Origin: a virus
Strand: one strand, 5' to 3'
DNA: 64,000 nucleotides
IMG/VR virus record: IMGVR_UViG_3300028859_000009
Span: 62,001 to 126,000 of that record
How positions within the stretch are numbered: the stretch's first letter is position 1; each line of letters begins with the position of its first letter. Below, piece after piece: positions 130 to 44,664 of this stretch. The position numbers and the translations under genes were made by a program. Under the pieces are notes generated by a model that had not been told where the DNA came from, searched no databases, and was given only the letters and a program-made list of their open reading frames with translations.

Positions 130-204
130 GCTGGTTTCGTCTATCGGTTAGGACTACAGGTTTTCAACCTGCCAAGAAGAGTTCAACTCTCTTAATCAGT
201 ACCA
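130..204 (+). tRNA. tRNA-Glu (UUC)
   Basis: The acceptor stem pairs 130-136 with 194-200 and the anticodon stem-loop around 157-173 places TTC at the anticodon. The T-arm is AAGAG, TTCAACT, CTCTT. The discriminator A is followed by an encoded CCA (202-204). It decodes GAA, a frequent codon in this AT-rich genome. Confidence 0.85.
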
Positions 205-210
205 AAAAAT

Positions 211-285
211 GGATTATTAGGCTCCTTGGTGGAGAACTTGACCGTCACTCAAGTAAAATTAACGGACCGTAACCGTTATAGTCCG
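211..285 (+). tRNA. unusual tRNA-Asp-like (GUC)
   Basis: The acceptor stem (GGATTAT with ATAGTCC), a 4-bp D-stem with a GG-containing loop and the anticodon stem CTTGA/TCAAG can all be drawn, with GTC at the anticodon. Two normally invariant features are missing: position 33 is C instead of U, and the T-loop reads ACCGTAA instead of TTCRANY although its 5-bp stem (AACGG/CCGTT) is perfect. It may be a diverged, non-standard or decaying tRNA. Confidence 0.55.
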
Positions 286-293
286 CTTATTAT

Positions 294-368
294 TGGAATG
301 TAGCTCTTAACGGTTAGAGCGGCACTTTGTTAAAGTGAGGGTTATTGGTTCGAATCCAACTATTCCAG
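294..368 (+). tRNA. tRNA-Asn (GUU)
   Basis: The acceptor stem is TGGAATG with TATTCCA, the D-arm is canonical, the anticodon loop is TTGTTAA and the T-loop is TTCGAAT on a well-paired stem. This is the better formed of two adjacent Asn(GUU) genes. No CCA is encoded. Confidence 0.9.
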
Positions 369-379
369 CAAAAATATAT

Positions 380-451
380 GGGAATGTAGCTCAAAGGCAG
401 AGCAACTGGCTGTTAACCAGTAGGTTAGGATATCGTGATTCCTCACTCCCG
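380..451 (+). tRNA. second tRNA-Asn (GUU), divergent
   Basis: The anticodon arm (ACTGG, CTGTTAA, CCAGT) is perfect and gives GUU. The acceptor stem has one A-C mismatch and the T-arm is abnormal: its loop reads ATCGTGA and one stem pair is T-T. The 5' half resembles the neighbouring tRNA-Asn, so this is probably a duplicate that is diverging or decaying. Confidence 0.6.
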
Positions 452-459
452 CAAAAAAT

Positions 460-533
460 GACCGAGTGCCCGAATGGAATAAGGGGATAGTCTGCAAAAC
501 TATATTGTGTGGGTTCGAGTCCCACCTTGGCCT
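460..533 (+). tRNA. tRNA-Cys (GCA)
   Basis: The anticodon arm ATAGT, CTGCAAA, ACTAT gives GCA. The T-arm GTGGG, TTCGAGT, CCCAC is perfect. The acceptor stem GACCGAG/CTTGGCC has one A-C mismatch at the second pair. Confidence 0.8.
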
Positions 534-545
534 CAATAAACATAA

Positions 546-617
546 TGCCGAAGCTTAGTGGAAAAGAGATTTCTCTCATAAGGAAATCCAAATGATTTCG
601 AACATCATATTCGGTAC
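546..617 (+). tRNA. tRNA with CAU anticodon (Met or Ile2)
   Basis: The acceptor stem TGCCGAA pairs with TTCGGTA, the anticodon loop is CTCATAA and the T-arm is ATGAT, TTCGAAC, ATCAT. The first acceptor pair is T-A, so this is not a typical bacterial initiator. An elongator Met or an Ile tRNA needing lysidine are both possible. Confidence 0.8.
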
Positions 618-683
618 ATAGTTTATAATTGTGACTATTATCATACTAATAGTATGTTATGATTAATAAAAATAAACTTATAT

Positions 684-757
684 AGTCTTGTAGTTCAGTT
701 GGTTAGAGCAATTGCCTGATAAGCAATAAATCGTGAGTTCAAGTCTCACCGAGACTA
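684..757 (+). tRNA. tRNA-Ile (GAU)
   Basis: All arms are canonical: acceptor AGTCTTG/CGAGACT, D-loop with GTTGGTTAG, anticodon loop with GAT on stem TTGC/GCAA, and T-arm GTGAG, TTCAAGT, CTCAC. It decodes AUC and AUU. Confidence 0.9.
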
Positions 758-766
758 CTAAATAAT

Positions 767-839
767 GCTCCTATCATATAATTGGTAAGTATGCGCGCCT
801 TATAAGCACGTCATGTAGGTTCAATGCCTACTGGGAGTA
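767..839 (+). tRNA. tRNA-Ile (UAU)
   Basis: The acceptor stem GCTCCTA pairs with TGGGAGT and the T-arm GTAGG, TTCAATG, CCTAC is perfect. The anticodon loop reads CTTATAA, giving UAU, on a 5-bp stem with one C-A mismatch. A UAU anticodon reads AUA directly, whereas most bacteria use a lysidine-modified CAU tRNA. AUA is a very common codon in this window. Confidence 0.7.
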
Positions 840-844
840 CAAAT

Positions 845-927
845 GGATTGATTGAGCAGTTGGTTGGCTCGCCGCACTGTAAATGCGTTCTCTTCGGAGC
901 TTGTGGGTTCGAATCCCTCTCAGTCCA
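845..927 (+). tRNA. tRNA-Tyr (GUA)
   Basis: This is a class II tRNA with acceptor GGATTGA/TCAGTCC, anticodon stem GCA/TGC around CTGTAAA, a long variable arm (about 887-902) and the T-loop TTCGAAT. One T-stem pair is mismatched. It is the last tRNA of the array. Confidence 0.88.
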
Positions 928-982
928 CTAATTTTACAAATAATTTATTATACATTTTTTATATATAAAGATAAAAAGTAGT

Positions 983-3440: not shown

Positions 3441-4592
3441 TTGAAAAATAAATTAATCGTAAAAAATAAAAAATCTAAAATATATTATACATTAGAAGAA
3501 TTACAATTATTAGTTAATAAATATGAAACTCAACAAGATTTTAGAAATAACAACTTACGCGAATATAAATATTCTATTAAAAATAATTTACTTAAATTAT
3601 TATTTAAAAATCACCAAAATGAAGGTAAAATAAAAATAGGAAATAAAAGTAAATGGTCACTTGAAATATTACAAACAGAAGCAGATAAATATAAAAACAG
3701 AAAGGAGTTCAGAAAAAATAATTCACCAGCATATTATACGGCGTGTAGTAAAAAAATATTAAATAAGTTATTTGAAAATCATCAAAATAATGGATATTTA
3801 GATAAGCCTGAATGGAAAGAAAATATTTATGTTATATATGTATACGAATTACCAGAATTTAATAGAGCTTATGTTGGATTAACAAATAATATAAAAAGAA
3901 GAGATAACGAACACATTTTTTCTATTGATGAATCTTTAAATAAATTCTGCAAAGAAAATAATATTCCTCTACCAAAGTATAAAATATTAGAAGACGAATT
4001 AAAATCAACAGATGCTCAAGCACAAGAAAAATATTGGTTAGAATATTATATAAATAACAATTGGAATATGTTTAATATTGCAAAAACTGGCTCATTAGGA
4101 TGTGCTTCTATAAAATGGAATAAAAAATCATTGCAAAAATTAGCGAATTCATGTAAAACTAGAAAAGAATTTAGTAAAAATTATGGTGCATATTGGACTG
4201 CTCAACAAAAACGAATGTTAGATGAATTATTTGAAAATCATATAAATAAAGGTTTTATAGATGATTATTGGACATTTGATGTATTACAATCTGAGGCTAA
4301 TAAATATAAAACAAGACAAGATTTTAGAAATTATAATATATTAGCATATAAAGCTGCATGGTATAAAAAAATATTAGATAAATTATTTGAAAATCATTTA
4401 AATGAAGGATATTCTGAAAAACAAGTAAGAACTGGTTATTGGACTATTGAAAAATTACAAGAAGAAGCAAATAAATACCAAACAAGAAATGAATTTAAAA
4501 TAAATAACTCTAAAGCATACGATTCATCAAGAGAAAAAATGAATTTTTTATTTAAAGATCATAAAAATAATGGTTATAAAAACAAACAATGA
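3441..4592 (+). CDS. GIY-YIG homing endonuclease with flanking DNA-binding repeats
   Basis: The central domain (about residues 130-210) has the GIY-YIG signature in the form IYVIYVYE ... AYVGLTNNIKRR and a later catalytic-type Glu region (EKYWLEYY). It is flanked by five or six copies of a 40-residue module (WTxExLQxEANKYKTRxxFRxxNxxAY ... KLFENHxNxGY), two before and three after the catalytic domain, a NUMOD-like array that probably reads the target. The only in-frame start near the N-terminus is TTG at 3441, abutting the previous stop. A broken copy of the same module is found at 61.9 kb. A freestanding mobile endonuclease is the best reading. Confidence 0.85.
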   Translation: MKNKLIVKNKKSKIYYTLEELQLLVNKYETQQDFRNNNLREYKYSIKNNLLKLLFKNHQNEGKIKIGNKSKWSLEILQTEADKYKNRKEFRKNNSPAYYTACSKKILNKLFENHQNNGYLDKPEWKENIYVIYVYELPEFNRAYVGLTNNIKRRDNEHIFSIDESLNKFCKENNIPLPKYKILEDELKSTDAQAQEKYWLEYYINNNWNMFNIAKTGSLGCASIKWNKKSLQKLANSCKTRKEFSKNYGAYWTAQQKRMLDELFENHINKGFIDDYWTFDVLQSEANKYKTRQDFRNYNILAYKAAWYKKILDKLFENHLNEGYSEKQVRTGYWTIEKLQEEANKYQTRNEFKINNSKAYDSSREKMNFLFKDHKNNGYKNKQ

Positions 4593-4858
4593 CGAACAAG
4601 TTTAAAATAGGAGATATAGTTATTTGTAATGAATGTTGTAGTGATATTATTGAATATCCTTGGTATCATAAAAATTCAATGATAATTATAGCAATTGATA
4701 GATTTAGTTATTTTACAGATTATTGGGATTCTGGAAATCCAGTTTTTATAACAAATAAAACTATAAATCATATAACATATGAAGGTATATCGGAAGAATG
4801 TTTAGAATATTCTATTAAGCATATAAGAAAAGAAAAATTAAAAAAGCTTCAGATTTAA
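4589..4858 (+). CDS. small protein with shared C-terminal basic peptide
   Basis: This 89-residue protein overlaps the endonuclease gene by four bases (ATGA). It begins KFKIGDIVICNEC, a small beta-barrel-like GDxVxC motif shared with several other small proteins here (for example at 43.7 and 48.3 kb). It ends in IRKEKLKKLQI, one of the recurrent C-terminal basic peptides. It closes the plus-strand operon at a bidirectional terminator. No function is assigned. Confidence 0.65.
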   Translation: MTNKFKIGDIVICNECCSDIIEYPWYHKNSMIIIAIDRFSYFTDYWDSGNPVFITNKTINHITYEGISEECLEYSIKHIRKEKLKKLQI

Positions 4859-4873
4859 TCTGAAGCTTTTTTA
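4838..4873. terminator. bidirectional terminator
   Basis: AAAAAGCTTCAGAT and ATCTGAAGCTTTTTT form a near-perfect hairpin between convergent genes, with T-runs on both strands. Confidence 0.85.
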
Positions 4874-4875
4874 AT

Positions 4876-5925
4876 TTATTTTTTACCATGTATTGGACAA
4901 TTATCATCAACAAAATATTTTTTGGAAGGATATATTTCTATATTATTAATTTTTGGACATGTGCACATAGGAGTTTCCCAAAATTTATGATACATAATAT
5001 CTTCATCTTCCCCGTACAATGTCTGCATATTAAATTCAATATTTGTTAATTTTTTATAATATTTTTTATAACTTTTATTAGGTTTAAAAATATCTTCATA
5101 AATAATCAATTTATCTTTTACGCATTTTTTTAATTTAGATAAATTTTCTTTATTTTTAATTCTATTTTCATCGACTCTACATCTAAAATCTTTATATTTA
5201 ACCAAATAAATATCTTCTTTTTCATATTTATCAATTAGTTCATCTATTGTAGATTTTTTCAACTCTTTATAATCATCAATATTAAAATCATCATCATCAT
5301 CTTCGTCAATACATTTTTCTAAATTTTCAAATCTCTCTTTTTTATCAAGAGGACCTCCATGAAATGTTATTTCACTAAATATTGCATTATATAAATCAAA
5401 AACAGTAAATGATTTTTCCCCCAAATTCGTTATTGAATCTTCTTCTATTTGTCCATCTATTAATTTATTATAATCATATACAGTAAAATTATTATTAATT
5501 GAAATATTTAAATTTTTAATATTATTAAGAGATATAAAATCTATTGCATAAAATTTAGTATAATCGTTTGATACACCTTGAATAGTTGGAGTAGCGGTTA
5601 ATTCATTATCATATTTATTACAATTCCAATTAACTTCAAGATAATCCATGTCGATTTTATCTGTTATATTATTCTCAATTTCTTGAAGAAAAGGATCGAT
5701 ATAATATCCTCCTAGTGATGAGTAAAAAATATCATTAAAATCATTAACATTATATGATACAATATCGAATAATCTTTTAAATATTAAATTTTCGCCTAAT
5801 TCTACTGTATCAGATAGGAAAAGTATTATATCATTTGGATTTACAATATCAGCTTCATCTATTGATGATAAATATGAAATTGATTCTTCACTATAATATA
5901 TATTATTATTTGTTATGGTTATCAT
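4876..5925 (-). CDS. hypothetical protein of the virion block, C-terminal CxC/CPIHG motif
   Basis: The 349-residue product has an acidic central stretch (EDDDDDFNIDD, about residue 212) and a C-terminal cluster CTCP ... DDNCPIHG that could bind zinc. The phrase EITFHGGPLDKKERFENLE resembles segments I have seen in conserved tail-region phage proteins, but I cannot place it in a named family. It is the last gene of the minus-strand block running down from 15.5 kb, and spacing of ten bases from its neighbour supports one transcript. Confidence 0.6.
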   Translation of the reverse strand: MITITNNNIYYSEESISYLSSIDEADIVNPNDIILFLSDTVELGENLIFKRLFDIVSYNVNDFNDIFYSSLGGYYIDPFLQEIENNITDKIDMDYLEVNWNCNKYDNELTATPTIQGVSNDYTKFYAIDFISLNNIKNLNISINNNFTVYDYNKLIDGQIEEDSITNLGEKSFTVFDLYNAIFSEITFHGGPLDKKERFENLEKCIDEDDDDDFNIDDYKELKKSTIDELIDKYEKEDIYLVKYKDFRCRVDENRIKNKENLSKLKKCVKDKLIIYEDIFKPNKSYKKYYKKLTNIEFNMQTLYGEDEDIMYHKFWETPMCTCPKINNIEIYPSKKYFVDDNCPIHGKK

Positions 5926-35140: not shown

Positions 35141-36124
35141 TCATTTAGTCCATGTGAACTTCTCAGTTCCAACATCATATATTCTATATAATTTATTGAC
35201 ATAACAAATATCATGTTCACCCCAATATTCACCATTATATCCACAGGATAATAAGACATCTTTCCGATATCCAAATCTATTCTTTCTTACATTATCAACT
35301 ATATAAAAATATGATGGATCACTTTTATGTTCAAATACTAATCCTAATTTTTTATAAATGTTCTCAGAACTACTCCACATCATATCAGCATATGAAGTTA
35401 TTGTAGAAGGATCATATGTATTAACAAAAAATTTAAATAATTTTGATGCACCTCCAATAACAGAAGTACCCATTTTATTACAAAATCTTAATAATTCATA
35501 GTCATCAGAACCTCCGTGTTGACCCATATTCTTTCTTAGTTTACCAAAAGTCATAACTGAAACTATTTCATCATTAAATTTTAAACCTAATTTAATAAAA
35601 GATCCTACGTTACCTTGAAGATGATTTTCATTTATAAATTTACTAACAAAAGAATTATCTTTTTTATCAAAAATTACAATTTTACATTTCCTTGCATATA
35701 TTGTTTCTGATAATCCAAACATATTTTTTAATCTGGATTTTATATTAGTTTTTCTAATTTCCCATAAATCTTCAAATATTTGTATTAAATGAATTCCTGA
35801 TTTTTCATATTCCAAATAAGAATTTAATTGATATTTTTTATCTACATTTAACTCACAATAACTATATAAATCAATAAATTTTAAAGCTAAATTTAATTCA
35901 GGTATATAAAAATCAGATTTATAATCGTTTATACTATAATTCTCAATTAATTTATATTTACAATTATTAATTACATGATTTCTAAATTCTTCAAAATTTT
36001 CTTTTGTATTCAAATTTTCAAAATTCGTAGGATTTAAATACGTTTGAATCCAACTATCTGATTTAGTTGGCTCTATTCTATATAGTGAATTATCTGTTAA
36101 TATTTCTTTACTTAGTTTTAACAT
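35141..36124 (-). CDS. Hef-like homing endonuclease relative with altered active site
   Basis: The 327-residue product aligns by eye along its whole length with the C-terminal 350 residues of the protein at 40381-42084: DFYIPELNLALKFID versus DIYLPDLKLAFEYNG, then GIHLIQIFEDLW, HLQGNVGSFIKLGL, MTFGKLR, ELLRFCNKMGTSVIGGASKLFKFF and FGYRKD. The Glu of AFEYNG, expected to be part of the Vsr/PD-(D/E)xK site, is Lys here. Nuclease activity may be lost. The N-terminal zinc and KYG repeats are also absent. It is the last gene after the split polymerase. Confidence 0.72.
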   Translation of the reverse strand: MLKLSKEILTDNSLYRIEPTKSDSWIQTYLNPTNFENLNTKENFEEFRNHVINNCKYKLIENYSINDYKSDFYIPELNLALKFIDLYSYCELNVDKKYQLNSYLEYEKSGIHLIQIFEDLWEIRKTNIKSRLKNMFGLSETIYARKCKIVIFDKKDNSFVSKFINENHLQGNVGSFIKLGLKFNDEIVSVMTFGKLRKNMGQHGGSDDYELLRFCNKMGTSVIGGASKLFKFFVNTYDPSTITSYADMMWSSSENIYKKLGLVFEHKSDPSYFYIVDNVRKNRFGYRKDVLLSCGYNGEYWGEHDICYVNKLYRIYDVGTEKFTWTK

Positions 36125-36191: not shown

Positions 36192-37163
36192 TCAAAATGT
36201 AAATATTGAATTTAATACTGACAATCTTTTATTAATTGTAGGCAATCCAATTGGTTCGAGGAATCTGTTAATTATACTCAACATTGTTACGTCAAATTGT
36301 TCGTCGTAATCAATTTTAACTCCTTCTTTTTCACATATTTCATATGGATATAATCCCCTTTGATATGCGAATATTGGATTTTTAATATGATTACAATAAA
36401 AATATTTTATACGCCCTCCTCTTATATTATCATATTTAGTTTTATATTCTGAATTCTTATTTAATAAATAATTATGTAATGCTGCGGCTTTAACTGCAAA
36501 GTGAGCACCTTTAACACACACTACATCTGTAACATCATCAATAACTTTAATAGGATAATTACTACAACTTGATGTCATACTAATATCTTCAATATTCGCC
36601 ATCATAAACTGTTTTTTCAAATCTTTAACAATAAGTAAAATCTTTCTAATATCCAAATTATTAGGATTAGCAAATATATATCGTAAGAACTCATAAATAT
36701 TCTCTCTCACAAATGGAGGAGTTGATGATTTAACAATTTCGACACCTTTTGGATAAAAATAACTCATACTTTCATAAAACAGTCCATCTTCCCAAGCAAC
36801 GTTATTAATATAATGTTTCTTTTGAATATGTAAAGCTGATCTATTAATTGTTTCAAGTTCAAAATTATGAATATTTTTAACTCCGTATTTAGCAGCATAT
36901 TCATCTAACCAACCATTATATAATTTCTCAATAAATACTCTATCAATATGTAAAATAAAATCTAATTCATCTCCAGTATAACCAACAGATTTTATCATAG
37001 GAGCGAACGAAATATAAAGTGAGTTATGTACTAATATATTATTAGCAATAAATGTATGAGTTTCATCATCAACTTCGATATCATAAACATATTCATCTTC
37101 AAATTCACCTATCATTTCACATGATTCTATATCATCAAAATAGTATTCTATATTATTTATCAT
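36192..37163 (-). CDS. 43: split intein C-fragment plus C-terminal part of DNA polymerase B
   Basis: Residues 1-47 form an intein C-fragment with block F (YVYDIEVDDETHTFIANNILVHN) ending in the His46-Asn47 splice dyad. Ser48 starts the C-extein SLYISFAPM, which completes polymerase motif C when joined to YGDTD of the upstream piece. The remainder is the thumb region, with the KKHYINNVAWEDG (KKxY-like) motif and KGVEIVKSSTPPF. The intein block F and the extein are both intact, so trans-splicing should restore a normal YGDTDSLYISF site. It is separated from the N-piece by a homing endonuclease and two other genes. Confidence 0.92.
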   Translation of the reverse strand: MINNIEYYFDDIESCEMIGEFEDEYVYDIEVDDETHTFIANNILVHNSLYISFAPMIKSVGYTGDELDFILHIDRVFIEKLYNGWLDEYAAKYGVKNIHNFELETINRSALHIQKKHYINNVAWEDGLFYESMSYFYPKGVEIVKSSTPPFVRENIYEFLRYIFANPNNLDIRKILLIVKDLKKQFMMANIEDISMTSSCSNYPIKVIDDVTDVVCVKGAHFAVKAAALHNYLLNKNSEYKTKYDNIRGGRIKYFYCNHIKNPIFAYQRGLYPYEICEKEGVKIDYDEQFDVTMLSIINRFLEPIGLPTINKRLSVLNSIFTF

Positions 37164-37168
37164 TTTAA

Positions 37169-37435
37169 TTATTTTATTATTTCAAATTTTATTATTTCAA
37201 ATTCATTTATATTAATATCATCTGTTGATGGTCTATCATAGAACATACTAAATTGAGCATGTACTGAATCACTATAAGCCAATTTAGCTTCTTCTTCAGT
37301 TTCTACAAACCATATAGGAGAATATTTATTAGTTGTAAATAAATATTCAGTACCAAATTCACTATCATCACTATAAATAACATTAAATCTTATAATTTTA
37401 TTAGTTTCTTTGTGTATAAATGTCCAAACTTCCAT
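37169..37435 (-). CDS. small conserved phage protein (cargo in split locus)
   Basis: The 88-residue product (MEVWTFIHKETNKIIRFNV ... YLFTTNKYSPIWFVETEEEAKLA) resembles a small protein I recall from other large phages. It overlaps the upstream gene by 35 bases and ends five bases before the intein C-fragment. It has no link to polymerase or intein motifs and so is cargo within the interrupted gene. Confidence 0.6.
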   Translation of the reverse strand: MEVWTFIHKETNKIIRFNVIYSDDSEFGTEYLFTTNKYSPIWFVETEEEAKLAYSDSVHAQFSMFYDRPSTDDININEFEIIKFEIIK

Positions 37436-38057
37436 ATAATTCTTTTATTTTTTCTATTAATTCATCATCAAATTTTAGATTTTCATATTTCAATTTTTCT
37501 AAAATTTCAAAAATATAATTATTAGATAATTTTTTAGAAATCACTCCTGATAAATTATTTGATGTAAATGAATATAAATCATCATCCAGCAATAAATTAT
37601 ACCAAATATTATAAGCATCTAAAGATGAAAACTTATTTGAAGTTATAAAACCGAAATCTAAAATCACCAATTTATATAATTTATATCCTAATGTGTATCC
37701 TTTTAAATTTACTGGCATTCCTTTTTCAAAATCTATTAAATTTAATCTTGTTTCATCAACAGAAAAATCGAATTCCAAGTCTAATGATATTTTATTTTCT
37801 ATCTTTAAATTTAATTTTTTTAAAATCTCAATAAACCAAAAATCTGGTTTAATATAAATTCCATATGAATGCTTTTTATAATAAAAATTACTTACATCAT
37901 ATTTAGATATTTCATTTTTAATATCAATATAATCGTCAGATATTATAACTCCTTCTTTTGACTTTTTTTTAATATATGTATCATCATTTTTTATAATATC
38001 ATTCAATTTAGACTTATTAAATTTTTCATAAGTTTTTATAAAAATTGATTTTTTCAT
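37401..38057 (-). CDS. hypothetical protein (218 aa), cargo in split locus
   Basis: The product begins MKKSIFIKTYEKFNKSKL, a weaker version of the recurrent N-terminal motif, and is otherwise unrecognised. It overlaps the homing endonuclease gene by four bases (ATGA). It may have been carried in with the endonuclease or inserted afterwards. Confidence 0.55.
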   Translation of the reverse strand: MKKSIFIKTYEKFNKSKLNDIIKNDDTYIKKKSKEGVIISDDYIDIKNEISKYDVSNFYYKKHSYGIYIKPDFWFIEILKKLNLKIENKISLDLEFDFSVDETRLNLIDFEKGMPVNLKGYTLGYKLYKLVILDFGFITSNKFSSLDAYNIWYNLLLDDDLYSFTSNNLSGVISKKLSNNYIFEILEKLKYENLKFDDELIEKIKELYGSLDIYTQRN

Positions 38058-39256: not shown

Positions 39257-40147
39257 TCATATTTTTCTAACTGAAAGTATTTTATCTGTTTTCAATATTT
39301 CTGATGGTTTAACTTCTATTTTTTTATTATCTCTAAAAACTATCATAGAATGATCATTAGTTACTATAATTTCCTCACCAGATTTAGTTTTTAATTTCCA
39401 TTTAGGTTTAGAAACTTTATGCCTAATAATTCTCTTAACTGGCGCATAATAAAGTTTTTTATCTTCATTCCAATTTAAAATAAGTTCTTTGCAATTAACT
39501 GACACATGTCCATTTAATGTTACACCAGCAGATCCATATTGAATATTTTTATTATATAAATCTTCTATTGTAAAATATCCATCATTAGTATTTATAATGG
39601 TCTTACAAAAAACGGAATCAGTATCACCATAAATTGTTATTGGAACATCTTTTGGTATAGGTTTTACATTTGAACAATCACAAACAAATCTACTATATAA
39701 TACATTATATCCATTTAATTCTTTTTTATCTTCAACTAAATCACCACGATAATAATTTAATTTTTCTAACATATTATCTACTGATGTATATGTATAATGT
39801 ATATTTTCACCATTTCTATCTAATAAATAAAATTTACCTTCTTTTTCTGCAATATATTCAAGTCCGAGTAATTGATGTGTTTTTGTGTCTAAATGCCATT
39901 CTTTATAAAAATATGTTTCAATCTTTTTAAGCATATAATTTATAACATCACGTCCTTGAGCAGTTATTGCATTTGCAATATGAGAATTTGATAATACAAA
40001 TTTTGGATGTGCAAATGCACCATAAGTTCCATTAATTACAAGTTTTAATGCAAGTTGCATAGCTTTTGCTCTATCGTATTCAGCCTTAGTTTCATCAATT
40101 TTTCTTTTTACTTCTGAAATTTTATCTCTCTTTTCTTGTGCTGTCAT
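39257..40147 (-). CDS. 43: DNA polymerase B middle fragment plus split intein N-fragment
   Basis: Residues 1-177 carry polymerase motif B (LALKLVINGTYGAFAHPKF) and the first part of motif C (IYGDTD, ending at Asp177). The intein N-fragment starts at Ser178: SVFCKTIINTNDGYFTIEDL, a class of Ser1 inteins known at this motif C insertion point, followed by block B (VTNDHSMIV). The fragment has 119 intein residues. Upstream polymerase parts (exonuclease and motif A) are missing from this gene and from the window, so the ATG at 40147 starts within the fingers domain. Confidence 0.92.
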   Translation of the reverse strand: MTAQEKRDKISEVKRKIDETKAEYDRAKAMQLALKLVINGTYGAFAHPKFVLSNSHIANAITAQGRDVINYMLKKIETYFYKEWHLDTKTHQLLGLEYIAEKEGKFYLLDRNGENIHYTYTSVDNMLEKLNYYRGDLVEDKKELNGYNVLYSRFVCDCSNVKPIPKDVPITIYGDTDSVFCKTIINTNDGYFTIEDLYNKNIQYGSAGVTLNGHVSVNCKELILNWNEDKKLYYAPVKRIIRHKVSKPKWKLKTKSGEEIIVTNDHSMIVFRDNKKIEVKPSEILKTDKILSVRKI

Positions 40148-40207
40148 TTTATATATTGTTTCTTATTATATGAATTATTTATGATTTGGTTTAAATAAAA
40201 AATATCT

Positions 40208-40261
40208 AGTTTATTAAATATAATATATTCTAATTATATAGTTTATTAAATATAATATATT
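40208..40261. repeat. 32-bp-period direct repeat
   Basis: Two identical 22-bp copies of AGTTTATTAAATATAATATA plus TT (40208-40229 and 40240-40261) lie in the AT-rich gap between the polymerase fragment and the Hef-like gene. It may be a scar of insertion or a regulatory repeat. Confidence 0.65.
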
Positions 40262-40341
40262 TTAATATATAATAATTATAATATAATTAGTTTAAAAAAT
40301 AAACTTTATTATTTTTTAAATATACAATATTAAAGATAATA

Positions 40342-40360
40342 ATGATACTAATGGTATCAT
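40342..40360. promoter_or_regulatory. 7-bp inverted repeat, possible operator
   Basis: ATGATAC and GTATCAT flank TAATG in the divergent promoter region upstream of the Hef-like endonuclease gene. Confidence 0.35.
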
Positions 40361-40380
40361 CATAAAATACAAATTATAAC

Positions 40381-42084
40381 ATGATAAAAGAAAAAGAGTT
40401 AAATATACAAATGACAAGTAGAAATATAACATATTATAAAAATTTAGGATATAATGTTATAAATGGTAATACTTGTAATATAAAAATTGAAGATGTAAAT
40501 AAAAATTCAAAACTTAAAATTACAGCGATTTGTGAGAAATGTGATTCTGAAAATTATATTTCAATCGAAAAATATTATAAAAATTTCAATAATCATAATT
40601 ATTATGGTTGTAAAAAATGTTCCAAGGAAAAATTCAAACTAACAAGTAATATATTATTTGGAGTTGATAATCCTATGAAAAATAAAGAAATAAAAGAAAA
40701 AGCAGAAAAAACTAATTTAAAAAAATACGGGTATAAAACTTCATTATTAAATAATGAAGTAAAAGAAAAAATAAAAAAAACAAATTTAGAAAAATATGGT
40801 ACGGAAATTCCTTTAGAAAATAAAGAAATTAGAGATAAAATTAAAAATACTAATTTAGAAAGATATGGAGTAGAATATCCTGCTCAAAATAAAAATATAG
40901 AAAATAAAATTAAAAATACCAATTTAAAAAAATATGGTTTTGAACATCCAGCTCAAAATGAAAAAATAAAACAAAAAATAAAAGACACAAATTTAGAAAA
41001 ATATGGTAACATTTCACCTTTTAAAAGTGATATAATAAAATCTAAATTCGCTGAAAAATATAAAGATAAATATAAAGAAATAAATATTATTGAAGTTGAA
41101 GATAATCATTTAATTATTAAATGTGATAAATGTGATCATTCATATAAAATTTCAAAAACTATGTTTAATCATAAAATGTTAGAACATATTATTTTATGTC
41201 CTAAATGTAATCCGTCATCTAATTCATTCATGGAATCTAAAATTATAGAATTCATATCAGAAAATTATAGTAAATCTATAATATTAAATAGTAAATCTAT
41301 AATATCTCCATTAGAATTAGATATTTATTTACCAGATTTAAAATTAGCATTTGAATATAATGGTATATATTGGCATAATGAAGTAAATAAAGATAATAAT
41401 TATCATTTAAATAAAACTGAAGAATGTGAAAAATTAGGAATACAATTAATTCATATATGGGAAGACGAATGGCTATATAAGAGAGAGATAATAAAATCTA
41501 TAATATTAAATAAATTAGGAAAAATAAAAAATAAAATATATGCTATAGACTGTGAAATAAAAAAAATTGATAATAATAATTTAGCTAGAGAATTTCTTAA
41601 TAATAATAATATTCAAGGATTTATAGGTTCAAAAATTAAAATTGGATTATTTTATGAAAAAAAATTAGTAAGTCTTATGACATTTGATAATAGACATATT
41701 ATAAATGAAGGAGAATATAATTTATTAAGGTTTTGTAATATATTAAATACTGATATTATAGAAGGAGAATATCAATTATTTAATTATTTTATTAAAAATT
41801 ATAATTCTAATAAAATAACAGTGTACTCAGATAGATCTATTAGTCAAGGTAAATTATATGAAAAATTAGGATTTAAATATGAAGGAAAAACTGATCCTAA
41901 TTATTTTTATGTCATAAATAGAAATAGATATAATAAATTTAACTTCAGAAAAAATAAATTAGTTATGGATGGATTTGATATTAATAAAACAGAGCATGAA
42001 ATAATGTTAGAAAGAAAGATATATAGAATATATGATTCTGGTAATCTAAAATTTGTATATTACAATAATATTGATATTAAATAA
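40381..42084 (+). CDS. Hef-like homing endonuclease with zinc modules and KYG repeats
   Basis: The 567-residue product combines two CxxC modules (CEKCDSE ... CKKCSKE, later CDKCDHS ... CPKCNPS), about six KYG repeats (FGVDNP, KYGYKT, KYGTEI, RYGVEY, KYGFEH, KYGNIS) and a C-terminal nuclease region with LELDIYLPDLKLAFEYNGIYWH and IWEDEW. The latter fits Vsr-like/PD-(D/E)xK Hef enzymes that replace mob genes in T4-type phages. The KYG array is shared with the three HNH paralogues. It is divergent from the split polymerase and probably acts as its mobile neighbour. Confidence 0.85.
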   Translation: MIKEKELNIQMTSRNITYYKNLGYNVINGNTCNIKIEDVNKNSKLKITAICEKCDSENYISIEKYYKNFNNHNYYGCKKCSKEKFKLTSNILFGVDNPMKNKEIKEKAEKTNLKKYGYKTSLLNNEVKEKIKKTNLEKYGTEIPLENKEIRDKIKNTNLERYGVEYPAQNKNIENKIKNTNLKKYGFEHPAQNEKIKQKIKDTNLEKYGNISPFKSDIIKSKFAEKYKDKYKEINIIEVEDNHLIIKCDKCDHSYKISKTMFNHKMLEHIILCPKCNPSSNSFMESKIIEFISENYSKSIILNSKSIISPLELDIYLPDLKLAFEYNGIYWHNEVNKDNNYHLNKTEECEKLGIQLIHIWEDEWLYKREIIKSIILNKLGKIKNKIYAIDCEIKKIDNNNLAREFLNNNNIQGFIGSKIKIGLFYEKKLVSLMTFDNRHIINEGEYNLLRFCNILNTDIIEGEYQLFNYFIKNYNSNKITVYSDRSISQGKLYEKLGFKYEGKTDPNYFYVINRNRYNKFNFRKNKLVMDGFDINKTEHEIMLERKIYRIYDSGNLKFVYYNNIDIK

Positions 42085-42100
42085 ACTTTTTATATTTTTG
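42071..42100 (+). promoter_or_regulatory. Bacteroidota-type promoter
   Basis: TTG at 42071-42073 and TATTTTTG at 42093-42100 are separated by 19 bp. Confidence 0.6.
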
Positions 42101-42158
42101 TATTATATATAATATAAAACTATTTAGTTAAAAAACTATAAATATGTTTACATTATTA

Positions 42159-42188
42159 TTGATAATTAAAAAACTTTTTATATCTTTG
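42159..42188 (+). promoter_or_regulatory. Bacteroidota-type promoter
   Basis: TTG at 42159-42161 and TATCTTTG at 42181-42188 are separated by 19 bp, 39 bases before the small gene at 42227. Confidence 0.72.
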
Positions 42189-42226
42189 TACTATAATAAT
42201 TATAAACAAAAAAAAAAATAAAGATT

Positions 42227-42433
42227 ATGAAACTGACAGCAGAAGAATACGAATTATTATTGAAGAAATTGGAATTTAGGTTTAAAAATTCAGGTAATGA
42301 ATTAGTAGAAAAATTAAAAAACAATGATGAATTATCTAATGATGATATCACATTATTGTTAAAAAAATTGGAATATAATTTCAAAAAAGGTAAGAATGAA
42401 ATTTTAGAAAAATTGGCTAAACAATTAGCTTAA
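42227..42433 (+). CDS. 68-aa helical protein with internal repeat
   Basis: The product contains two copies of a helix LLLKKLEFRFKNSGNELVEKL / LLKKLEYNFKKGKNEILEKL, so it is a small tandem duplication. It has its own promoter pair and is followed by a strong terminator, giving a mono-cistronic early-type unit. Such highly expressed small proteins are often host-takeover factors; this is inference. Confidence 0.65.
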   Translation: MKLTAEEYELLLKKLEFRFKNSGNELVEKLKNNDELSNDDITLLLKKLEYNFKKGKNEILEKLAKQLA

Positions 42434-42465
42434 ATTATTCTTAGTTATTTTACATTACACTCTTC

Positions 42466-43166: not shown

Positions 43167-43676
43167 TTATAAATTAAATTTTGTTACTGAATCATCAAAT
43201 TCTTTTTTCTTCAAATAATCTTTATATTGTTCTGGATATTTAGATATTATTCTATTGATATCGTACGTATTTAAAAAACCTAATGTTTCATGTCCTTGTT
43301 TATTTTTACAATATAGTGATGCTCCAGCTTCTAATAATATTCTCATTGATGCTAGGTCACTATTTATAGCAGCTCTCATTATTGGAGTATCACCGTTATC
43401 ATTTTTAGCTTCAATATCAGCACCAACCTCTATAAGTTTATAAATTAAATCAAATGAACATATGGTAGCAGCATATGTCAAAGGAGTCTGTCCATTTTTA
43501 GCTTTAATATTTGGATATGCTCCCTCATCTAATAAATTTATCATTTTTATTGATGATTCTTTGCTTCTATTATCAATAATATTTTCATCAATAATTTTGA
43601 TCAATTCGTTAGTAGCTTCAATCTTTATAATAAAGTCATCTGAATAATCTTCAAATTTTTTAAAATTAGTTATCAT
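43167..43676 (-). CDS. ankyrin-repeat protein with signature termini
   Basis: The N-terminus MITNFKKFEDYSDD and the end DDSVTKFNL are the cassette signatures. Residues about 60-150 form ankyrin repeats: GAYPNIKAKNGQTPLTYAA, EVGADIEAKNDNGDTPIMRAA and EAGASLYCKNKQGHETLGF. Ankyrin repeats bind proteins, so it may target a host protein. If the N-terminus is a packaging signal, it would be injected with DNA. Confidence 0.78.
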   Translation of the reverse strand: MITNFKKFEDYSDDFIIKIEATNELIKIIDENIIDNRSKESSIKMINLLDEGAYPNIKAKNGQTPLTYAATICSFDLIYKLIEVGADIEAKNDNGDTPIMRAAINSDLASMRILLEAGASLYCKNKQGHETLGFLNTYDINRIISKYPEQYKDYLKKKEFDDSVTKFNL

Positions 43677-43990
43677 AAATTAAATTTATTTGATTGTATT
43701 ATATATTCTAATTCATCTTTATTTTTTGATATATATTTTATTTCATCTAATGACATATTTCTTTCATTGTGTGAGAAATATTTTTCTAAATTTTTTGGTA
43801 TTTCTTCATAATGTATCACATATGGCTGCATGAATTCTGTGTCATATCTAATATATTCACCTATATTATTTGATGTAAAAGTAATAATTTCAGAATCCGA
43901 ATATGACTCTGATTCATTACACACTACCAAATCTCCAATTTCTGGCTCATCTTTACAAATTTCTTCAAATAATTTAAAATTAGTTATCAT
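43673..43990 (-). CDS. cassette protein, GDxVxC family, copy A
   Basis: MITNFKLFEEICKDEPEIGDLVVCNES at the start and ELEYIIQSNKFNL at the end. The sequence is a clear paralogue of the gene at 44350-44664. It overlaps the ankyrin gene with an ATGA junction. The GDLVVC ... FTSNNIGEYIRYD core suggests a small beta-barrel; function is unknown. Confidence 0.65.
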   Translation of the reverse strand: MITNFKLFEEICKDEPEIGDLVVCNESESYSDSEIITFTSNNIGEYIRYDTEFMQPYVIHYEEIPKNLEKYFSHNERNMSLDEIKYISKNKDELEYIIQSNKFNL

Positions 43991-44014
43991 AAATTAAATT
44001 TTTTTATATTATTA

Positions 44015-44353
44015 TTAAAATTCAATTTCATCATAATAATCTTGAATTTCTTCTGGTGTGCATACTAATTTACCCATAAATATATTATTATCATAGCTTT
44101 CTGATGTTGGGTACGGATACCATGTATAAGAATTTTCATACTCTGGATGTTTTACTATTGTAATTGTTTCTAAATCTGTGAAATTATCTCTAGCTGTAAA
44201 AACTTTATTCTTACGAAGTCTAATCCAATCTTTAATTATAATCTCTGGCATTCCAATTTTTTTCAGAGATATATAAAAATCTGGCATTTTTACAGGCATA
44301 TTCCAAAGTAATTTTTTATCAGAATCTTCAAATTTTTTAAAATTAGTTATCAT
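44015..44353 (-). CDS. cassette protein (112 aa)
   Basis: It starts MITNFKKFEDSDKK and ends YYDEIEF, so only the N-terminal signature is present. The body has NKVFTARDNFTDLETITIVKHPEYENSYTWYPYP. It overlaps the next cassette by four bases. No family is recognised. Confidence 0.6.
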   Translation of the reverse strand: MITNFKKFEDSDKKLLWNMPVKMPDFYISLKKIGMPEIIIKDWIRLRKNKVFTARDNFTDLETITIVKHPEYENSYTWYPYPTSESYDNNIFMGKLVCTPEEIQDYYDEIEF

Positions 44354-44664
44354 AAATTAAATTTATTTGATTGTATTATATATTCTAATTCATCTTTATT
44401 TTTAGACCAATATTTTATTTCATCAATTGACATATTTCTTTCATCATCACCTGAAAAATAACTTTTCATATTTTTTGGTGTATAATCATATTTTATTATA
44501 TAAGGATAAGCCTCTCCGTCATCATATCTAATAAATTTACCGATATTAGTTGATGTAAATATAGTATTAATATCAGCATAGTCTACTTCTTCACATATAA
44601 CAAAATCTCCAATTTCTATTGATTTTTCGTTTATTGATTCAAATTTTTTAAAATTAGTTATCAT
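44350..44664 (-). CDS. cassette protein, GDxVxC family, copy B
   Basis: It starts MITNFKKFESINEKSIEIGDFVICEE and ends ELEYIIQSNKFNL. It matches copy A at 43673-43990 over nearly its whole length, with the last 50 bases almost identical, evidence of recent duplication or recombination. An ATATATAA box lies upstream; this is the first gene of the cassette operon. Confidence 0.65.
   Translation of the reverse strand: MITNFKKFESINEKSIEIGDFVICEEVDYADINTIFTSTNIGKFIRYDDGEAYPYIIKYDYTPKNMKSYFSGDDERNMSIDEIKYWSKNKDELEYIIQSNKFNL

What the first reader, a model, noticed from the sequence alone, without database searches (positions are those of the whole stretch)
39257..42084. The polymerase is broken a second time, upstream of motif B
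The 39257-40147 gene starts in the fingers region with an ordinary ATG, so motif A and the whole exonuclease domain must be encoded elsewhere or be absent. A Hef-like endonuclease lies divergently just upstream, as at split polymerase genes in some T4-type phages. The enzyme would then consist of at least three polypeptides.
Basis: inference. Interest (0 to 1): 0.7.

Follow-up and report, generated by a model that had tools for sequence, protein, structure and literature searches.

The report
Phage DNA polymerase split in three
The main DNA-copying enzyme of this very large bacterial virus is encoded in three separate gene pieces, one lying about 98,000 bases from the others on the opposite strand; the same break is found throughout its relatives, including the largest known phages, so it is an old and apparently working arrangement rather than an error.

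Summary
The gene at 39257-40147 (M) starts at the tip of the fingers domain of a T4-type family B polymerase. Exonuclease and motif A lie in a 494-aa gene (N) outside the window, 98.4 kb away on the opposite strand of the same 140.7-kb record. N ends and M begins with the two fingers helices; residues between motifs A and B sum to a normal fingers length.

The break is old. All 80 IMG/VR relatives examined end N there. Contigs and complete Mahaphage genomes up to 735 kb keep the halves 85-281 kb apart on opposite strands; an allied clade keeps them about 4 kb apart.

M also ends in an N-intein whose C-half is at 36192-37163, so three translated pieces should mature into a two-chain enzyme. Precedents exist: Aeromonas phage Aes144 (gp43A/B1/B2), and 43A/43B of phage 25, reported to co-purify and be active.

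The Hef-like genes at both broken ends are real but probably later insertions: a sister phage has the same split and empty sites at both ends. Novelty: new variant of a known kind. Association and splicing are inferred, not shown.

The parts
39617..40147 (-). M extein, 177 aa: second fingers helix, motif B, palm up to YGDTD of motif C
   Evidence: PF00136 from profile position 133; RB69 gp43 residue 553 aligns with residue 28 of the uninterrupted homologue P0004; ATG aligned in 9 of 10 M homologues
39257..39616 (-). N-terminal half of a split intein (residues 178-296 of M) and stop codon
   Evidence: PF14890 Intein_splicing E 9e-11; 49.7% identity of M residues 141-294 to the intein-containing piece of Tenacibaculum phage PTm1
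37023..37163 (-). C-terminal half of the split intein, 47 aa, ending VHN
   Evidence: PF14890 matched at profile positions 115-155, E 9e-5 but below the Pfam cut-off; homologous C-inteins in L113-L117 and L119
36192..37022 (-). C extein, 276 aa: SLYISF... rest of palm and thumb, and stop codon
   Evidence: phrog_262 DNA polymerase E 2e-30; 94% identical to the C part of the uninterrupted MC gene of L084
38054..39217 (-). 387-aa ORF in the intein gap, probable free-standing endonuclease (VSR-like by position)
   Evidence: phrog_22677, function unknown; homologues lie upstream of the C piece in L113-L115, L117, L119; PTm1 and Aes144 have an annotated VSR endonuclease at this position
37401..38057 (-). 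218-aa ORF in the intein gap, unknown
   Evidence: no convincing family match
37169..37435 (-). 88-aa ORF in the intein gap, unknown
   Evidence: no family match
40381..42084 (+). Hef-like homing endonuclease gene, divergent, upstream of M
   Evidence: PF24308 E 5e-27; phrog_3339 homing endonuclease E 3e-120
40205..42465 (.). about 2.26-kb inserted cassette (Hef-like gene and a 68-aa ORF), starting 58 bases upstream of the M start codon; 15 bases stand here in the sister phage L107
   Evidence: blastn comparison
35141..36124 (-). 327-aa Hef-like gene (C-terminal part of the family) just downstream of the C piece
   Evidence: phrog_3339 positions 258-534, E 5e-76

Best explanation
This is a T4-type replicative family B DNA polymerase whose gene was broken long ago at the turn between the two long helices of the fingers domain, and whose C-terminal half was later broken again by a split intein. 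N (494 aa: exonuclease, palm strand with motif A, first fingers helix; outside the window) and M+C (second fingers helix, motif B, motif C, thumb) are translated separately. M and C are joined by trans-splicing at YGDTD/S. The joined chain then docks on N: the two fingers helices pair as in the one-chain enzyme and the palm is completed across the interface, since motif A is on one chain and motif C on the other. Shown by sequence: the pieces, their order, the position of the breaks, conservation, purifying selection. Inferred: splicing, docking, activity. The Hef-like genes at the broken ends are probably mobile genes that settled beside the halves after the break.
For: N half found: PF03104 and PF00136 matches, 494 aa. 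Break position: N aligns to RB69 gp43 up to residue 492 with 19 residues to spare; residue 28 of the MC homologue equals RB69 553. Nothing lost: motif A to motif B across the break sums to 131 residues in the window and 124-146 in 13 of the 14 other phages for which a sum could be made (735-kb LR756501: 185; PTm1 gave none), against 106-146 in 5 contiguous enzymes, with Cassandra at 231 and MaF61 without a count. AlphaFold2: N ends in helix 453-491, MC begins with helix 3-41; motif A (365-403) and motif C (172-178) regions fall below pLDDT 50 when each half is folded alone. Conservation: 0 of 80 relatives continue N past this point. Placement: N and MC on opposite strands 85-86 kb apart in two independent contigs, 100-281 kb apart in four Mahaphage genomes. 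Purifying selection: dN/dS N 0.07-0.12, M 0.10-0.13, C 0.04-0.05. Intein: Ser1, TNDH, HN/S present; the predicted spliced junction YGDTDSLYISF is the uninterrupted sequence of L084. No other polymerase of families A or C in this record. Precedent: 43A/43B of phage 25 co-purify and are active, PMC2988022 passage.
Against: No experiment shows association, splicing or activity. The MC model is weak (pLDDT 67, pTM 0.44) and the low palm confidence may come from shallow alignments (35 and 19 rows). G000 is a fragment, so a second, intact polymerase outside it is not excluded. 13 of 17 N-bearing records searched lack MC; in at least four of them the record ends before the expected place, but I did not check this for all 13.
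Confidence: 0.87

Rival explanations
1. A Hef-type homing endonuclease inserted into the fingers region and broke the gene in this lineage; the halves then moved apart, each keeping a Hef copy at its broken end.
For: Hef-like genes stand at both broken ends in the window's genome, 44% identical to each other. Among 30 N loci, 11 have one within about 100 bases of the N stop, and none shows one within 500 bases upstream of N.
Against: Sister contig 3300029923_000008 has the same split without Hef at either end and with empty sites at the window's insertion points. Among 30 N loci, 15 show no Hef-like match in the fetched stretch, and 4 of 10 M loci lack one upstream. The family has 6 gene places in this record, so it is common here. 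In the allied clade nrdB and nrdA, not an endonuclease, lie between the halves. An ancestral Hef later lost cannot be excluded.
Confidence: 0.1
2. The pieces are decaying remnants, replaced by another polymerase.
For: The gene is in three pieces and the record is incomplete.
Against: dN/dS 0.04-0.13 for all pieces; catalytic positions invariant across the alignments; fixed across a deep clade; no family A or C polymerase in the record.
Confidence: 0.03
3. Assembly or start-codon artefact: N and M really belong to one gene.
For: N lies 1.3 kb from the end of the record.
Against: Independent contigs show the same N end (80 of 80) and the same M start; two other contigs carry both halves in the same relative orientation 85-86 kb apart.
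Confidence: 0.01

Closest known systems
Aeromonas phage Aes144 gene 43A / 43B1 / 43B2 (JN377900)
   Same: N half, fingers/palm piece ending in an N-intein, VSR endonuclease in the intein gap, C piece beginning with a C-intein: the same three-piece layout
   Different: All pieces lie in a row within 5 kb on one strand; here N is 98 kb away on the other strand. Its M piece also carries an annotated two-part join that the window lacks.
Gene 43A/43B of Aeromonas phages 44RR and 25
   Same: Family B polymerase split into two cistrons; for phage 25 the halves are reported to co-purify and to be active (PMC2988022, passages)
   Different: Halves adjacent, separated by a short untranslated stretch or a seg gene; no distant dispersal. 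The exact break position was not computed here for 44RR or 25; Aes144 was used instead.
Tenacibaculum phage PTm1 and Acinetobacter phage Ac42 split polymerases; Synechococcus phage S-CREM2 subunits A and B
   Same: N half ends and C half begins at the fingers tip; PTm1 also has the split intein
   Different: Halves within about 2.5 kb on one strand
Pseudomonas phage MIJ3 / Cassandra polymerase B
   Same: Split intein at motif C with a homing endonuclease gene between the pieces (PMC6892783 passages)
   Different: No break in the fingers; exonuclease and motif A are on the first piece (803 aa in Cassandra)

Membership tests
T4-type (gp43) family B DNA polymerase | 3'-5' exonuclease domain with its acidic motifs | tested here: met
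   PF03104 E 8e-11 on N; D98, E100, D197, Y301, D305 invariant in 35 N sequences; that these are the Exo residues is recalled
T4-type (gp43) family B DNA polymerase | Motifs A (DxxSLYP), B (KxxxNxxYG), C (YxDTDS) | tested here: met
   DFSSLYP in N, KLVINGTYGA and YGDTD in M, S from C after predicted splicing; the motif patterns are recalled
T4-type (gp43) family B DNA polymerase | Fold of the T4/RB69 enzyme | tested here: met
   N model best hits are RB69 gp43, E 3.5e-23, TMq 0.68. MC model also hits RB69 gp43 but weakly, E 4.6e-6, TMq 0.31
Split gp43A/43B polymerase | Two cistrons broken in the fingers | tested here: met
Split gp43A/43B polymerase | Halves adjacent in the genome | tested here: not met
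   98.4 kb apart, opposite strands
Split gp43A/43B polymerase | Halves associate and are active | not testable with these tools
   needs co-expression
Split intein at the pol-c site | Nucleophile at +1, block B TxxH, C-terminal HN followed by S | tested here: met
   Ser178 of M, TNDH, VHN/S; Pfam PF14890 above cut-off for the N half (42.3 against 35.8), below it for the C half (22.8)
Split intein at the pol-c site | Trans-splicing activity | not testable with these tools
   needs assay
Hef-like homing endonuclease (phrog_3339 / DUF7487) | Family match and presence/absence at a defined site | tested here: met
Hef-like homing endonuclease (phrog_3339 / DUF7487) | Cleaves the empty allele and homes | not testable with these tools
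   needs assay

The most novel reading that the evidence does not exclude
In the huge phages of Bacteroidetes the polymerase has become an obligate two-subunit enzyme whose subunits are encoded 85-281 kb apart on opposite strands, and the separation is used: the N subunit, a complete exonuclease domain with half a palm, is made at a different time or dose from the catalytic C subunit, so proofreading nuclease and polymerase can be regulated separately. The fingers tip would be a natural fracture point that evolution has used several times.
Probability: 0.12. Interest if true: 0.7.

Novelty: new variant of a known kind. Interest (0 to 1): 0.5.

Why it matters
A replicative polymerase whose active site is built from two separately encoded chains far apart on the genome, conserved through the largest known phages, is a natural test of how a single-chain enzyme can become an obligate heterodimer. 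The break has arisen, or been undone, several times at the same turn of the fold (one origin for all split rows rejected, p-AU 0.0005), so the fingers tip is a candidate site for engineered split polymerases. It also warns that annotation by one gene misses half of this enzyme in such phages.

Tried and rejected
Local assembly break or wrong start: rejected by independent contigs. A second, contiguous polymerase in the record: none found with DNA_pol_B, DNA_pol_A or DNA_pol3_alpha. Identity of the 247-aa gene just upstream of MC in the linked clade: I guessed a sliding clamp, but Pfam and PHROGs gave nothing, so it is left unknown; a protein search for it in the window's record found nothing. 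Searching 12 M-bearing records for N gave nothing; most are short, one is 308 kb, and without a positive control in that call this shows little. Alignment of full-length contiguous rows with truncated rows scattered some C-terminal ends (Aes144, S-CREM2, MA9V2, two Vibrio phages and L019); those end positions were not used, and the trees used only columns up to T4 residue 495. PTm1 gave no motif A and MaF61 no motif A or B by my simple patterns, so they have no spacing value. Literature searches for this split in huge phages found no description of it; the main text of the huge-phage paper PMC7162821 has no 'DNA polymerase' or 'split' (term search). One preprint on Jug phages says polymerase genes there are frequently split by endonuclease sequences (PMC12363816, passages). 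Petrov, Ratnayaka and Karam 2010 (J Mol Biol 395:457) on insertions in gene 43 was seen only in a reference list; its content is recalled and not relied on.

Full report
What was claimed and what is there. The gene at 39257-40147 (-) has an ordinary ATG, an in-frame stop a few codons upstream, and begins within family B polymerase after motif A (PF00136 from profile position 133).

Where the rest is. The window is bases 62001-126000 of a 140,730-base IMG/VR record, G000. DNA_pol_B matches at two places only: M, and an ORF at G000:C1:1339-2823 (+) of 494 aa. That ORF also carries the exonuclease domain (PF03104) and motif A DFSSLYP. The C-terminal piece is at window 36192-37163 (-), recognised by PHROGs. 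The gap between N and M is 98.4 kb, and they are on opposite strands.

Position of the break. N aligns to RB69 gp43 as far as residue 492, with 19 residues left. In the uninterrupted homologue of M+C from L084 (P0004), residue 28 aligns with RB69 553. By extrapolation the break lies near RB69 511-526; that this is the tip of the fingers is recalled. Predicted models agree: N ends in helix 453-491 (pLDDT 80.6) and MC begins with helix 3-41 (pLDDT 67.3, weak overall). The distance from motif A to motif B summed over the two chains is 131 in the window and 124-146 in 13 of the 14 other phages with a sum (LR756501: 185; PTm1 no value); contiguous enzymes give 106-146 in 5 of 7, with 231 in Cassandra and no value for MaF61. 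So the break cuts a turn and removes nothing.

The second break. M ends in an N-intein and C starts with a C-intein, inserted at YGDTD/S. Ser1, TNDH and HN/S are present. The predicted spliced sequence equals the uninterrupted one of L084. Five M homologues (three different sequences) have no intein; six C homologues (L113-L117, L119) start with a C-intein. The intein is therefore variable while the fingers break is constant. Three chains are made and two are expected to remain.

How old and how wide. Of 314 IMG/VR stretches that encode a relative of N, the best 80 were fetched. In all 80 the ORF stops at the same place, at most 24 residues past the end of the match, and none runs on. M homologues begin there too: 9 of 10 at an aligned ATG, 1 of 10 with an upstream ATG. 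In the complete genomes of 634 to 735 kb the N and MC matches are on opposite strands: 114.7 kb apart in LR756501 if circular, 131.9 kb in LR756502, 100.8 kb in LR745206 and 280.7 kb in LR756504 (tblastn positions; ORFs of LR756504 not inspected). The same holds for contigs 3300029983_000007 (86.5 kb) and 3300029923_000008 (85.4 kb). These genome sizes are those of the Mahaphage genomes of PMC7162821, which also places the Lak phages there and predicts Bacteroidetes hosts (term-search passages). In Lak-B5 and LR756500 the halves lie on one strand about 9-10 kb apart. In an allied clade N and MC are separated by about 4 kb holding nrdB, nrdA and a 247-aa gene of unknown function (13 loci listed; families from one locus).

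Records without the partner. Of 17 N-bearing records searched for MC, 4 have it and 13 do not (the same call also covered 2 records chosen for M, both with M). In the four that carry the window's own N sequence (L004, L005, L007, L011) the record ends before the place where MC is expected from the other genomes (positions). I did not check this for the other nine. None of 12 M-bearing records, one of them 308 kb, gave N.

One break or many. On a tree of 54 N regions (columns before the break only), the window's side holds 42 split rows and one contiguous row, MaF61, on a long branch; the label needs 6 changes, 5 forced by starred branches. On 25 rows chosen from these, a single clade of all split rows is rejected (p-AU 0.0005), while a single clade of the 16 split rows of the Bacteroidetes and huge phages, without MaF61, is not (p-AU 0.11). 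These are quick trees with long branches. Losses by re-fusion cannot be told from repeated breaks.

Selection. dN/dS between the window and sister sequences is 0.07-0.12 for N, 0.10-0.13 for the M extein and 0.04-0.05 for the C extein (synonymous sites are near saturation in some pairs). The pieces are maintained.

The Hef-like genes. One follows N by about 60 bases, one lies divergently upstream of M; they are 44% identical. Of 30 N loci (many near-identical), 8 have a same-strand and 3 an opposite-strand Hef-like gene right after N, 3 have one about 420 bases on, 1 has one only upstream (about 1 kb), and 15 none. Of 10 M loci, 6 have one upstream and 4 none. Comparison with sisters shows about 2.26 kb in the window upstream of M where L107 has 15 bases, and about 4.1 kb after N, starting 18 bases past the stop, which L008 lacks. 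L008 and L108 are the same contig, so one phage has the split with neither insertion. The family has 6 gene places in the record. The endonucleases are best seen as later arrivals that favour these ends; whether an ancestor of theirs made the break is open.

How it most likely works. N supplies the exonuclease and the motif A aspartate; M+C supplies motif B, the motif C aspartates and the thumb. The two fingers helices pair across chains. Each half alone has low predicted confidence in its palm segment, which fits, but does not show, that the palm forms only in the complex. Association of such halves is reported for phage 25 (PMC2988022, passages).

Verdict. The layout matches Aeromonas phage Aes144 43A/43B1/43B2 in kind. 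What is different is that the split is fixed in a clade of huge phages and the halves are unlinked. New variant of a known kind.

Noticed in passing
window 43167-44664 (-): Four neighbouring small ORFs start with nearly the same peptide (MITNFKKFE / MITNFKLFE) and three end in KFNL, though their middles differ. A similar start (MKHVKLFE) occurs on ORFs of relatives (L065, L076). A shared leader or cleavage signal is possible.
   Followed up: no
L093 (LR756501, 735-kb phage), ORF 3827-5545: The MC subunit of the 735-kb phage has about 47 extra residues before the fingers helix.
   Followed up: no
L111, L112, L120: MC homologues with open frames of 596, 596 and 698 codons, well beyond the usual 453: C-terminal extensions or in-frame insertions not examined.
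   Followed up: no
window 130-928 (+): Array of seven tRNA genes: Glu, Asn, Asn, Cys, Ile, Ile (anticodon tat), Tyr.
   Followed up: no
L034, L036, L038, L044, L049, L054, L055, L060, L062, L065, L069, L070, L076: Recurrent order N polymerase half, nrdB, nrdA, about 247-aa unknown gene, C polymerase half in an allied phage clade (families checked for L038 only).
   Followed up: partly
G000:C1 near 3144, 49717, 84626, 86609, 93893, 102675: Six places with DUF7487 (Hef-like) genes in 140.7 kb.
   Followed up: partly
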